Assembly: GCA_944390805.1 (NCBI GenBank)
Contig: CALXQW010000037.1
Coordinates: forward strand, 1 to 64,000
Length of the DNA: 64,000 nt
Origin: an uncultured Opitutales bacterium
GTDB lineage: Bacteria; Verrucomicrobiota; Verrucomicrobiia; Opitutales; Intestinicryptomonadaceae
Direction: 5' to 3'
The translations under genes were made by a program, and so were the position numbers. The notes beneath the pieces are model-generated. The model was not told the origin of the DNA. It saw only the letters and a list, made by a program, of their open reading frames with translations, and searched no databases. Below are positions 1-4,765 of this stretch, in pieces; position 1 is the first letter of the stretch; each line of letters opens with the position of its first letter.

Positions 1-182
1 CAGTAGAATTTACCGAGAGCGACTTTGGCTATACATATAATGGAGAGATAAATTCGTTAAATGGGAGTTTTCTAATAGAGAACAATTCATTATATTTTGT
101 GTCTGTGCCAGAGCCAGCCGAGTATGCCGCAATATTTGGCATGCTGGCGTTGGGTCTTGCCTTGTGGCGCAGACGAAAATAA
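1..182 (+). CDS. PEP-CTERM surface protein, C-terminal fragment (5' end outside window)
   Basis: Only the last 60 codons are present; the gene enters from the left edge and stops at TAA 180-182. The translation ends in the tripartite PEP-CTERM tail: VPEP, a hydrophobic segment, then a basic WRRRK end. In this family the tail is a sorting signal processed by an exosortase after Sec export. The fragment closely matches the C-terminus of the next gene: their last 78 bases differ at only three positions. The two genes are therefore tandem paralogues, 20 bases apart and probably co-transcribed. No exosortase gene is visible in the window. The function of the missing N-terminal part is unknown. Confidence 0.85.
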   Translation, partial: VEFTESDFGYTYNGEINSLNGSFLIENNSLYFVSVPEPAEYAAIFGMLALGLALWRRRK

Positions 183-202
183 TTGTACGGGAGAAATGGC
201 CT

Positions 203-2674
203 ATGAAAAATAAGTTCTATTACATAGCATTTTTTCTAACTTTACAAGTGAGTGCATGGGCTGCTCCTCTAACGCAGTCTGATGTTACTGGGTATTGGGC
301 TGCAAACCAGACTTCCTTGAAAGACGCTAATATTGCTTATATAAGCGTTGATTATCTTACGGCTGACTCTTCTTCAAGGGTTAATCCTGAAACATGGAAT
401 GTTTCTTCTGCTCCGGGAACAGAGGTTTTGGGTAAGGCTTTGCTTTTTTCTGGAAGTACTTACATGACTCAGATAGACGGAAATGTCTATCTGGCGGGCA
501 TATACAACGGATCGGTCTCTGGAGAGTTCGGCTCTTATGACACTTCAATACCAAATAAGTGGGAGTTTTACGGCGGGGCAGATAATTCTACATTGTATGT
601 AGGGAATATAACATCCACATTGGGAAAAGCTGAAAAGAACAACTTGGTCATAAGGAAAAAAGCTTCTGGCAAAAACTTTTCCTTAGTTGCAGGAGAGGTC
701 TGGGTTCTAAATAGTGGAAGCGTATCTTTAGGCTCATCTTCCGCTGGATGTTTCTTGACAAATCTAACTTTTGGAAATCAAGAGACTGGAGGATCTATAA
801 ATCTGACTGGAGAGAGCGATTCTTCTAGATCTGTATTATATGTTAGGGCTTCAAATATTACCAGTTATATATCTGAAATAAATCTCAATAATGGAGAGTT
901 TGACATATATAAAGGAACCTCTAATGATACTGAAGCTTTTACAGATCCTACGGTTGATTTTTCATCTGCCTCTCTCAATGTTTCAGGATCAAACATATTC
1001 CGTTTTGGTTCAAGCAGCACAGACAAGATGTCTACGAATTTCTCATTGGGAGATATTAATGTATTAGAAGGTGCATTTCTTGGATTTGCGGCATATACAA
1101 CAGGGGATATCTCGCTGGGAAATGTAAATGCCTCTGATAATGGATCTATAACTGTCCAAGCAAATAATTTTTCCATAGGAAATATTAACACGTCCAATAC
1201 TTTTAATTTTAACGTAGGCGCTCAAGCGATAGGTAGTGGAATAGAGACTGTTTCATTGGGAACTAAAATAAACTTAAATGGAACTAGTAATACTTCCCTA
1301 TCTAATCTAAATATATACACTCATTATTTGCAGAATGCTTCTGAAATAACAGATATTACTCTCAATAATGCAGGTTTGGCATTCTACGGGGCTGCATATG
1401 ATAATGGCGGTACAACCGCATATTATGGTTATGATGTAGATTTGTCTAATGCCACGATAACCTTAATGGGCAAGAACACTTTTAAATTTGGATATGCCCA
1501 TAACAACAAAATGGAAGGTACATTGACTTTGGGTGATATTGTACTTGCTTCATCCGATATAAATAGCGATTGGAGCATATATACTTCAAAAGATTATATT
1601 TATGCAAATAGCATCTCTACTACGGTAAAAGGAGAAGCAGGCAGTTCTATATATTGGAAATTAAACAATAGGACTCTTTCTGTTTCAAAGGATGTAGAGA
1701 TTGCTGTAGAAACTTTCCAATTATATGGAACATTGGATGTCGCCGGGAACTATGTTAACAGTTTTGAGGGAGATACATTTTTACGTTTTCAATTTGCGTA
1801 TAATGGGTTAATAAAAACTGCTGGAACATTTGAGACACAGGGAACATTTGTTATAGGAATTGCAGATGGCACTCTTTGGACAACTTCAAATACGGCCTTA
1901 GATCTTGGTGGCATAGTAGGTAGCACATCCGGTTCTAAGATAACCACTGGATACAATTATGCCGAGTATGCAGGTAATACAGGTATAGCGATGATAACAT
2001 TAACAGGTGCCGGCAATTATAGCACAACAACTGCGCTTGTGGATTTTGCATCTGGAGGGAATCCTGCGGAGCTTGCATTGAACGGAGCTTTAGGAATAAA
2101 TAAGACCGGAGAAGGAGTGCAGTATTTAAGGGGCGAGAATATGTACCGCGGTCAGACGACAGTTTCCGCCGGAGAGCTATATATAAATGCGTCAGGCAGC
2201 GGCAACAGTGCAGGTTGGGGCATAGGTGCAGTTTCTTTGGAAGGCGGCAAGTTTGGAGCAGTAGGAGCAAGTAGCAACATAGGCAAGGTAGTTGCGACAG
2301 ACTTGACATGGTCCAACTCTGCGATGATAGCAGTAGATTTTGCAGCGGACGGCACGAGCGATTTAATAAGCCTCAGCGGAAACTTCTTAAAGGCAGAGGG
2401 AGACGCAGAGGGGCAGTACATGTTTGATTTCAGCGGTGTATTTGCTGCGGAGGAGACCCGGTACGAGATAATGAACTGGGCAGCAGATTCTACAGTAGAA
2501 TTTACCGAGAGTGACTTTGGCTACATGTACAACGGAGAAGAGAACTCTTTAGACGGGTATTTTGTTATGGAGAACAATTCGTTGTACTTTGTATCTGTGC
2601 CAGAGCCAGCCGAGTATGCTGCAATATTTGGCATGCTGGCGTTGGGTCTTGCTTTGTGGCGCAGAAGAAAATAA
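203..2674 (+). CDS. PEP-CTERM surface protein with autotransporter-like beta-strand repeats
   Basis: Predicted exported surface protein of 823 residues. I place the start at ATG 203 (MKNKFYY) because it begins a signal peptide ending near AWA and is preceded by GGGAGAA at good spacing; an in-frame ATG at 164 lies inside the upstream gene. The body is rich in Ser, Thr, Asn and Gly, with repeated short strand-like units, as in secreted beta-helix proteins with autotransporter-associated repeats. The C-terminus has a conserved module (GGKFGAVGAS onward) followed by the PEP-CTERM tail VPEPAEY, a membrane segment and WRRRK. The same module appears in the protein at 21675-23447. Its ligand or role is unknown; attachment to the envelope or export to a matrix is the family expectation. 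Confidence 0.85.
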   Translation: MKNKFYYIAFFLTLQVSAWAAPLTQSDVTGYWAANQTSLKDANIAYISVDYLTADSSSRVNPETWNVSSAPGTEVLGKALLFSGSTYMTQIDGNVYLAGIYNGSVSGEFGSYDTSIPNKWEFYGGADNSTLYVGNITSTLGKAEKNNLVIRKKASGKNFSLVAGEVWVLNSGSVSLGSSSAGCFLTNLTFGNQETGGSINLTGESDSSRSVLYVRASNITSYISEINLNNGEFDIYKGTSNDTEAFTDPTVDFSSASLNVSGSNIFRFGSSSTDKMSTNFSLGDINVLEGAFLGFAAYTTGDISLGNVNASDNGSITVQANNFSIGNINTSNTFNFNVGAQAIGSGIETVSLGTKINLNGTSNTSLSNLNIYTHYLQNASEITDITLNNAGLAFYGAAYDNGGTTAYYGYDVDLSNATITLMGKNTFKFGYAHNNKMEGTLTLGDIVLASSDINSDWSIYTSKDYIYANSISTTVKGEAGSSIYWKLNNRTLSVSKDVEIAVETFQLYGTLDVAGNYVNSFEGDTFLRFQFAYNGLIKTAGTFETQGTFVIGIADGTLWTTSNTALDLGGIVGSTSGSKITTGYNYAEYAGNTGIAMITLTGAGNYSTTTALVDFASGGNPAELALNGALGINKTGEGVQYLRGENMYRGQTTVSAGELYINASGSGNSAGWGIGAVSLEGGKFGAVGASSNIGKVVATDLTWSNSAMIAVDFAADGTSDLISLSGNFLKAEGDAEGQYMFDFSGVFAAEETRYEIMNWAADSTVEFTESDFGYMYNGEENSLDGYFVMENNSLYFVSVPEPAEYAAIFGMLALGLALWRRRK

Positions 2675-3024: not shown

Positions 3025-3501
3025 ATGCCGCAGAAGACAAATGTCGTTAGAATTTTCGATTCGCACAAACTTTGCTATGAGTTTGCCCAGGTTGACATAA
3101 CTCCGCCATTTACGGCGGAGGATATGGCATTGGCCATGGGGTTGGATCCAGCATCTGTATTTAAAACTCTTGTTACCGTTGCCACAAAGACGCGCAGAAA
3201 TTATGTATTCATGGTGCCGGCAAACGCAGAGTTAGATTTAAAGAAAGCAGCAACAGCCGTAGATGAAAAGGCCTTAGAGATGCTTAAGCAAAAAGAACTT
3301 TTGCCGCTTACTGGCTATGTACACGGCGGATGTTCTCCCGTTGGAATGAAAAAAACTTTTCCCACCGTCATAGACGAAAGCGCCAACGGATTTGAAATCA
3401 TAACATTTAGCGCCGGAAAAATAGGCATGCAGGTAAGAACATCTCTTTCTGAATTGGCTAAAGTTTTAGATTTCTCATTAGCTGATATAGTTGTAAGATA
3501 A
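3025..3501 (+). CDS. ybaK: Cys-tRNA(Pro) deacylase, YbaK/EbsC family
   Basis: Predicted cytoplasmic trans-editing enzyme that hydrolyses cysteine misattached to tRNA(Pro). The 158-residue length matches the stand-alone YbaK/EbsC family. Family features are visible in order: the N-terminal YEFAQVD segment, the ASVFKTLV motif that contains the conserved catalytic-region lysine, and the G-C-SPVGMKK loop near residue 107, followed by the C-terminal core with the GKIGMQVRTS strand. The start ATG at 3025 gives a full-length protein, although the Shine-Dalgarno match is poor. The gene stands alone, convergent with the membrane protein on the minus strand. Editing of other tRNAs by relatives (ProX, YeaK) is possible, but this branch is best matched by YbaK. 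Confidence 0.9.
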   Translation: MPQKTNVVRIFDSHKLCYEFAQVDITPPFTAEDMALAMGLDPASVFKTLVTVATKTRRNYVFMVPANAELDLKKAATAVDEKALEMLKQKELLPLTGYVHGGCSPVGMKKTFPTVIDESANGFEIITFSAGKIGMQVRTSLSELAKVLDFSLADIVVR

Positions 3502-3613: not shown

Positions 3614-4693
3614 CTAAAATTCCATACCAAGCGCATCCAGTTCAAGAGTGCTCATGAGGGGAGATTTCATTAGACTGCCTGGGATTGAAGTGGGCTTTTT
3701 ATTGTAATATGTTTTTCCAATCTGCCTTTTTACTATCTTGTAAAGCCGGGTGTGGTATAGGCTTTCAGGATGAACTCCTATATTGCGCATTTCATAGTCT
3801 CCAACAACGGAGAATTTCGGGTCGAACTGTACTGCAAATAAGAACCTATATGGAGTGCCGGGCATATATATGCTTCCGTGCACTAGCCCTATAAAAACTG
3901 TATCTTTCTTTAAATCGCCAAGAGTGCAGGCCGCGTTTATCTGCGGTTTGTAGAAACCTTGGGCGTCGTACTGCTCGCGGTTGTTGTTGTATATACCATC
4001 AGGTATGGGCAGGGCAGTAGTGGTGCGCACATTAATGTTTAGGTCTTTTGAAAGTTTAGATGCCAAGGCCGCTGCAAGAGATTCTGAAAAACCGTAAAAA
4101 GGCATAAGATATACATCGGCAATACCTATCTTTGCTTGCTCGACACTATCCATATATTCATTTAAGTTTATTTGTGGAAAGCCGGTTATATTAGCCTTTA
4201 TTTTCTCAATTAGGTAAAATCCCCACTGTATTCCGTATATGCTAAGCACAACTACGCAGACTGTAATAACAGAAATAGATACTATTGATTTCACTGCCAA
4301 TATTGCAGTTTGCAACATCATACGGCCCATCTTTGGCTGTGATGGAATATCGCTTATTTCTCCGGTAAGAAAACCGATGAAAGATGTCGCCTCCCAATTT
4401 ATATATGAGGCGTCTACTTCTGGTATTATGCGCGAATCAATGGAGGTTTTTAACTGAAATTTCAGAGTTTCTCCTTCTAAAACTATGCGCGCCTGACGCC
4501 AATGAACTACCGGATTTGCAGACAATACATTCCATATTTTTGAACCAGCTTTGAGTATGATTAAGTTTTCTTCCTCAGTTTTTAGCTCGTATCCCAATCT
4601 GCCAAAGAAAGATTTAGCGCCTTCTTTCCAGTCTATCGCTATATCGGCATGTGGAATTTCAAAATACGGAGCGTATAAATTCTCATCTGTCAT
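3614..4693 (-). CDS. Membrane protein with a degenerate archaemetzincin-like domain (predicted pseudo-protease)
   Basis: A 359-residue protein with three parts. Residues 1-120 form an uncharacterised soluble domain, residues about 127-152 a hydrophobic membrane segment, and residues about 188-355 a domain I align by eye to archaemetzincin (peptidase M54). Shared landmarks are the opening strand VYLMPFYGF, the NNNREQYDAQ segment (236-245; archaemetzincins have an R-QY motif here), the GLVHGSIYMPG strand (269-279) and a closing LM-S-LELD element like the family VM-S-V-D. Where active enzymes have HExxHxxGxxH, this protein has IVKRQIGKTYY (320-330), so the zinc ligands and catalytic Glu are missing. 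I therefore predict a non-catalytic, perhaps binding, domain. It is a single gene, convergent with ybaK. The fold assignment is an inference without a search. Confidence 0.6.
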   Translation of the reverse strand: MTDENLYAPYFEIPHADIAIDWKEGAKSFFGRLGYELKTEEENLIILKAGSKIWNVLSANPVVHWRQARIVLEGETLKFQLKTSIDSRIIPEVDASYINWEATSFIGFLTGEISDIPSQPKMGRMMLQTAILAVKSIVSISVITVCVVVLSIYGIQWGFYLIEKIKANITGFPQINLNEYMDSVEQAKIGIADVYLMPFYGFSESLAAALASKLSKDLNINVRTTTALPIPDGIYNNNREQYDAQGFYKPQINAACTLGDLKKDTVFIGLVHGSIYMPGTPYRFLFAVQFDPKFSVVGDYEMRNIGVHPESLYHTRLYKIVKRQIGKTYYNKKPTSIPGSLMKSPLMSTLELDALGMEF

Positions 4694-4726: not shown

Positions 4727-4765
4727 AAAAAAAAAAGCGGGGAAACTCTAAAAAGATTTCCCCGC
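4727..4765 (-). terminator. Rho-independent terminator of the secG-metY run
   Basis: A perfect 9-bp stem (GCGGGGAAA / TTTCCCCGC) with a 10-base-pair-rich loop region lies next to ten A residues on the plus strand, which read as a U tract on the minus strand. It sits just after the metY stop. Confidence 0.9.

What the first reader, a model, noticed from the sequence alone, without database searches (positions are those of the whole stretch)
3614..4693. Membrane-anchored domain resembling archaemetzincin with its zinc site replaced by basic residues
Residues 188-355 match archaemetzincin (M54) landmarks in order: an opening strand with MPFYG, an R-x-QY segment, a G-x-x-x-x-IY strand and a closing LM-S-x-LELD. 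At the catalytic motif the HExxH is replaced by VKRQIGK, so His-to-Lys, Glu-to-Arg and His-to-Lys changes remove zinc binding. It is joined to an N-terminal domain and a membrane helix, an unusual setting for M54. A conserved pseudo-protease could be a sensor or scaffold.
Basis: partly seen in the sequence, partly recalled or inferred. Interest (0 to 1): 0.65.

Follow-up and report, generated by a model that had tools for sequence, protein, structure and literature searches.

The report
Membrane-anchored dead archaemetzincin (pseudoprotease)
This gene encodes a membrane protein whose outer half has the fold of a zinc protease (archaemetzincin) but has lost every zinc-binding residue, and it belongs to a small, scattered bacterial family that keeps this dead fold under selection, probably to bind another protein rather than to cut it.

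Summary
The minus-strand ORF 3614-4693 (359 aa) has a small N-terminal alpha/beta domain, one membrane helix and a C-terminal domain (about 189-359) that is a genuine archaemetzincin (M54) fold. The AlphaFold2 model superposes on A. fulgidus AmzA with Z 19.1, 2.0 A over 149 residues. Profile-profile comparison with 31 HExxH-bearing M54 proteins gives 99% and E 4.8e-18. Thirteen family members form one clade (support 100/100). In all 13 the first zinc His is basic (R/K), the catalytic Glu is Q/A/T, the other two His are lost, no Cys-4 zinc site remains, and the Met-turn Met is kept. The dead domain is the most constrained part of the gene (dN 0.125, dS about 1.4). Four of 13 members are lipoproteins, so the domain is very probably extracytoplasmic. 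The window genome holds no active M54 paralogue. Three members lie beside RHS toxin fragments, so an immunity role is possible but unproven. Best reading: a new bacterial pseudo-archaemetzincin family acting by protein binding. Precedents are PIGS (eukaryotic, membrane-anchored) and CarG (bacterial, zinc-bound). New variant of a known kind; the function is inferred.

The parts
3614..4693 (-). whole gene, 359 aa, N-terminal domain + membrane helix + pseudo-archaemetzincin domain
   Evidence: orthologue in the same genus (63% identity) at the same place beside the MetY-like gene
4349..4693 (-). N-terminal alpha/beta domain, residues 1-115 (beta-alpha-beta-beta-beta-beta-alpha), no Pfam family; found only fused to this family
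   Evidence: AF2 mean pLDDT 83.5; no Pfam hit; domain profile hits only this family in 223 genomes of the order; fold matches ambiguous, best Z 9.6
4205..4321 (-). hydrophobic stretch, residues 125-163, single membrane anchor
   Evidence: Kyte-Doolittle maximum 2.59 over 19 residues; long helix 122-153 in the model
3617..4129 (-). pseudo-archaemetzincin (M54-fold) domain, residues 189-359
   Evidence: VIA Z 19.1, 2.0 A, 149 residues to 3zvs; Foldseek E 3.2e-9 to 2x7m; hhalign 99%, E 4.8e-18
3713..3730 (-). residues K322-R323-Q324-I325-G326-K327 in place of the HExxH motif (H1->R323, E->Q324, H2->K327)
3968..3979 (-). R239-E-Q241-Y242 segment shared with active M54 (Q in 30 of 31 M54 and 12 of 13 family members)
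3635..3670 (-). Met-turn M342 and S344-P345 to L352-D353 (Met and Asp shared with M54; Pro specific to this family)
4727..4765 (-). intrinsic terminator of the upstream MetY-like gene, which makes the finding's gene a separate transcription unit
   Evidence: RNA fold -18.2 kcal/mol, z -5, followed by a run of U

Best explanation
The gene encodes a bitopic inner-membrane pseudoprotease. The C-terminal domain is related to, and most simply descends from, archaemetzincins; it has lost the catalytic zinc, the catalytic base and the structural Cys-4 zinc, and is held outside the cytoplasm by the membrane helix (or, in other members, by a lipid anchor). It most likely uses the old substrate groove to bind a peptide or protein partner without cutting it, as a receptor, scaffold or inhibitor. 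A conserved basic residue occupies the position of the first zinc ligand and may bind a partner carboxylate or carbonyl where zinc once did. The N-terminal domain would then sit in the cytoplasm and pass on or anchor the signal. Shown: the predicted fold, the uniform loss of metal ligands, monophyly, purifying selection, fusion to the N-terminal domain. Inferred: topology, catalytic death, partner binding, the role of the basic residue.
For: Fold: AF2 C-domain pLDDT mostly 87-95 apart from one loop; Z 19.1, 2.0 A, 149 residues to AfAmzA. Homology: hhalign 99%, E 4.8e-18; a profile of the dead clade finds HExxH M54 proteins in another phylum at E 2.8e-4 to 3.9e-8. Motif: H1 R9/K4, E Q5/A7/T1, no His at H2 or H3, Cys lost, Met kept 13/13; no conserved His or Cys anywhere in the domain. 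One clade, 100/100. Selection: C-domain 81% identical to the congeneric orthologue, dN 0.125 vs dS 1.41, against N-domain 53% and linker 38%. Exposure: G031, Geomonas, G661 and G696 members are lipoproteins with a lipobox Cys. No active M54 in the window genome. Groove edge strand R-F-x-F and R-x-QY largely kept.
Against: No partner, phenotype or conserved operon was found; neighbours differ between most genomes. dS is saturated, so the dN/dS ratio (about 0.09) is only approximate. The family is rare (13 complete-domain members found) and the alignment for AF2 had 11 rows. Loss of HExxH does not by itself exclude a non-zinc activity.
Confidence: 0.6

Rival explanations
1. It is an immunity protein, or orphan immunity protein, of an RHS or other polymorphic toxin: a mobile, membrane- or lipid-anchored binder that neutralises a toxin outside the cytoplasm.
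For: In G031, G066 and G256, from three families, the gene lies next to or one gene away from RHS core fragments with variable C-termini; by a rough estimate such adjacency has a chance of under 1% per genome. Distribution is patchy (8 of 54 near relatives), and the Verrucomicrobiota-side G031 and the Geomonas proteins are 68% identical, which suggests horizontal transfer.
Against: The window copy and those of G407, G109, Geomonas, G661 and G696 are not seen beside RHS genes, and three of these genomes (G407, G109, Geomonas) have no RHS core match at all. RHS presence does not track the gene (5 of 8 positives vs 19 of 46 negatives). G066 and G256 are sisters and may count as one event. The first gene after RHS differs between them, so the pseudo-M54 may be a passenger.
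Confidence: 0.17
2. It is a catalytically active enzyme that uses another chemistry or another metal site in the M54 fold.
For: Strong purifying selection on the domain; Met-turn Met, R-x-x-K and Asp retained.
Against: No invariant His or Cys, and only one invariant acidic residue, D353, which M54 has too; there is no candidate metal triad or nucleophile.
Confidence: 0.08
3. It is a decaying gene on its way to loss.
For: Patchy occurrence.
Against: Intact frames in all complete members; dN far below dS; the same residues conserved across two phyla.
Confidence: 0.02
4. The resemblance to M54 is convergent or only superficial.
For: Sequence identity is only about 20%, and the score is below the curated NCBIfam cut-off.
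Against: Profile-profile E 4.8e-18, scores far above 3000 shuffles, and the four archaemetzincin entries at structural Z 17.9-19.1 with everything else at 10.7 or less.
Confidence: 0.01

Closest known systems
Archaemetzincin AmzA / MEROPS M54 (AfAmzA 3zvs and 4axq, MkAmzA 2x7m, MlAmzA 3lmc)
   Same: fold over the whole domain, R-x-QY segment, RxxK at the head of the active-site helix, HExGH glycine, Met-turn Met, closing Asp
   Different: all three zinc His, the catalytic Glu and all Cys-4 residues lost; about 20 C-terminal residues with the last Cys pair missing; joined to an N-terminal domain and membrane helix
PIGS/Gpi17 luminal domain of the eukaryotic GPI transamidase
   Same: membrane-anchored domain with an AmzA-like fold that lacks the zinc triad and the Cys zinc finger (PMC9098846); 8imx_S appears among the matches at Z 8.1
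   Different: much more distant in structure and sequence, eukaryotic, part of a five-subunit complex; PIGS is reported to lack the conserved active-site Met that is kept here
CarG of Myxococcus xanthus
   Same: bacterial archaemetzincin relative without protease activity that works by binding another protein, CarD (PMC3427221, PMC8156234)
   Different: the catalytic Glu is changed (HQxxH) but it still binds two zinc ions; it is a transcription-factor partner with no membrane anchor described
RHS polymorphic-toxin immunity proteins
   Same: three members lie in the immunity-gene neighbourhood of RHS C-terminal fragments; anchored, apparently mobile
   Different: no toxin partner in the window or in most members; no shown protection

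Membership tests
Archaemetzincin fold family (M54 clan relative) | metzincin fold of the archaemetzincin type | tested here: met
   Z 19.1, 2.0 A, 149 residues to 3zvs; hhalign 99%
Archaemetzincin peptidase M54 (as an enzyme family) | HExxHxxGxxH catalytic zinc motif | tested here: not met
   R-Q-I-G-K in the window; lost in all 13 members
Archaemetzincin peptidase M54 (as an enzyme family) | Cys-4 structural zinc site (HCx4CxMx17CxxC) | tested here: not met
   no aligned Cys; the protein ends before the last pair
Archaemetzincin peptidase M54 (as an enzyme family) | Met-turn methionine | tested here: met
   M342, 13 of 13
Archaemetzincin peptidase M54 (as an enzyme family) | score above the curated family cut-off | tested here: not met
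   30.2 bits vs 145 for NF033823; no PF07998 hit
Archaemetzincin peptidase M54 (as an enzyme family) | zinc-dependent proteolysis | not testable with these tools
   needs biochemistry; the absence of ligands argues against it
Pseudoprotease conserved under selection | dead site with purifying selection on the domain | tested here: met
   dN 0.125, dS 1.41 in residues 189-359
PIGS-like GPI transamidase subunit | specific similarity to PIGS beyond the shared AmzA-like fold | tested here: inconclusive
   8imx_S only at Z 8.1, 4.0 A, behind other metzincins
CarG | HQxxH and Cys zinc ligands, translational coupling to carD | tested here: not met
   no ligands; the upstream gene is MetY-like and ends in a terminator
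RHS immunity protein | gene directly downstream of a toxin-bearing RHS gene | tested here: inconclusive
   true or nearly so in 3 loci, false in the window and most others

The most novel reading that the evidence does not exclude
The M54 fold has been turned into a mobile extracytoplasmic binding protein, perhaps an immunity protein against RHS-type toxins, in which an invariant basic residue takes over the place and role of the catalytic zinc in gripping a bound peptide.
Probability: 0.15. Interest if true: 0.68.

Novelty: new variant of a known kind. Interest (0 to 1): 0.47.

Why it matters
The biological role of archaemetzincins is poorly known. A bacterial family in which the fold is kept under selection after all metal ligands are gone suggests that the fold has a binding role separable from catalysis, parallel to PIGS in the GPI transamidase and CarG in myxobacteria. 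It also gives a ready set of proteins with which to look for the ligand that the M54 groove recognises, since a dead binder can be used as a trap.

Tried and rejected
Pfam, PADLOC and NCBIfam scans gave only the sub-threshold archaemetzincin match for the C-domain and nothing usable for the N-domain; a weak CrcB-like NCBIfam hit on residues 131-211 covers the membrane helix and was disregarded. phmmer against PDB sequences found nothing relevant; the family profile ranks 2x7m first, but at E 0.095 only. No homologue in viral contigs, phages or plasmids. The idea that RHS genes track the family at genome level was not borne out. No conserved operon: window neighbours are syntenic only in the same genus. 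A decoy role for an active paralogue was rejected for the window genome, which has no second M54 match. The N-domain fold search gave only a crowd of common alpha/beta grips at Z 7-9.6, so no assignment was made. The viral structure library gave no relevant match.

Full report
What is there. The ORF at 3614-4693 is on the minus strand and encodes 359 residues. It follows a MetY-like gene (O-acetylhomoserine sulfhydrylase by my reading) whose end carries a strong intrinsic terminator (-18.2 kcal/mol, z -5, then ten U), so it is probably transcribed alone. The convergent downstream neighbour at 3025-3501 looks like a YbaK-type deacylase (my reading of the sequence, not tested). The synteny is kept only in the same genus.

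Is the M54 resemblance real? Yes. Pfam finds nothing, but NCBIfam NF033823 matches residues 194-328 at E 3.9e-7, far below its 145-bit cut-off. A profile of 31 HExxH-bearing M54 proteins scores the window protein at 24.7 bits, or 27.1 for the domain alone; 3000 shuffles reach 11.9 at most. In the reverse direction, a profile of the dead family (A4) picked out genuine HExxH archaemetzincins in genomes of the Geomonas phylum at E down to 3.9e-8. Profile-profile comparison covers the whole domain with probability 99% and E 4.8e-18. The AlphaFold2 model from the family's own sequences (11 rows) has a confident C-domain. Foldseek's five best PDB hits are the archaemetzincins, and VIA-align gives Z 19.1 with 2.0 A over 149 residues to AfAmzA, the next non-M54 hit being at Z 10.7.

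What happened to the active site? The alignment is anchored by the invariant R-x-x-K at the head of the active-site helix, by the glycine of HExGH and by the Met-turn Met. It gives H1->R323, E->Q324, H2->K327, third His->P334, Cys->T335. In 13 family members H1 is R (9) or K (4), E is Q, A or T, H2 is K, L, Q, T or E, the third His is P, R, A or T; the Met is kept in all. No His or Cys is conserved anywhere in the domain, and the only invariant acidic residue is D353, which M54 has too. So neither the catalytic zinc site nor the Cys-4 zinc site can be built, and no replacement metal site is visible. That the protein is catalytically dead is a strong inference, not a measurement.

Family and history. 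Members were found in the window's own family and order, elsewhere in the phylum, in Geomonas edaphica and in two further genomes of that phylum sample. They form one clade with 100/100 support; the tree is unrooted, so descent from active M54 is the simplest reading rather than a shown one. The G031 member and the Geomonas member are 68% identical, which across two phyla suggests horizontal transfer. Between the window gene and its congeneric orthologue, the dead domain is the most conserved part: 81% identity, dN 0.125, dS 1.41, against 53% for the N-domain and 38% for the linker. dS is near saturation, so the ratio is approximate, but neutral decay is excluded.

Architecture and side of the membrane. 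Eight members share the N-domain plus one hydrophobic stretch, and in 223 genomes of the order the N-domain profile hit nothing but this family. Its predicted fold is a common alpha/beta arrangement that cannot be assigned. Four members are instead lipoproteins with a lipobox Cys and no N-domain, which indicates that the dead domain works outside the cytoplasm. Charge bias around the helix is not informative.

Mechanism. Most likely the domain binds a peptide or protein in the old substrate groove without cutting it. In favour are the retention of the groove-edge strand (R283-F-x-F), of the R-x-QY segment and of the helix frame, with an invariantly basic position where the first zinc ligand was. 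The alternatives are an immunity role and an unknown catalytic role. The immunity idea rests on three loci (G031, G066, G256) in which the gene lies beside RHS core fragments with variable ends. It is weakened by the absence of RHS neighbours elsewhere, including the window, and by the lack of genome-level co-occurrence (5 of 8 versus 19 of 46). The window genome has no active M54 that this protein could regulate.

Comparison. Pseudo-archaemetzincins are known: PIGS of the GPI transamidase has an AmzA-like luminal domain without zinc ligands (PMC9098846), and CarG is a protease-dead, zinc-bound partner of CarD (PMC3427221; PMC8156234). The family here is a third case, bacterial, membrane- or lipid-anchored, and without any metal ligand. 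In the held library, 24 papers mention archaemetzincin and none of the titles or abstracts shown describes this family. As an M54 peptidase it fails the defining tests; as a member of the M54 fold family it passes.

Noticed in passing
L022, L025, L026, L027, L028, L038 (and L029, L033, L037): A second, separate group of M54 relatives in the same phylum has lost HExxH (e.g. SIGHA, PIGFQ, GVFAN), often behind long N-terminal regions; six of them group together with 99/97 support.
   Followed up: partly
L030, L031, L032, L036: A third group of short M54 relatives with signal-like N-termini keeps most of the Cys motif but has R-S-I-G-M-like sequences in place of HExxH. The M54 fold seems to have lost catalysis several times in these bacteria.
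   Followed up: partly
L099 1390-2157: An M54 relative reads R-A-L-G-H in place of HExGH but keeps the second His and the Cys-4 residues: it looks like an intermediate, although the tree does not join it to the dead clade.
   Followed up: partly
L061, L064, L065: RHS core fragments with variable C-termini lie, in two of the three loci in tandem, beside the pseudo-M54 gene, with different small proteins (some with membrane stretches) between them.
   Followed up: partly
L043 738-4258: In Geomonas the member sits downstream of a run of small secreted or membrane proteins of unknown function, one with a NADase-type F5/8 C domain (PF25302).
   Followed up: no
window 164-2674 (+): An 836-residue repetitive surface-type protein ending in an EPAEYAAIFGMLALGLALWRRRK tail looks like a PEP-CTERM-sorted autotransporter-like protein.
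   Followed up: no
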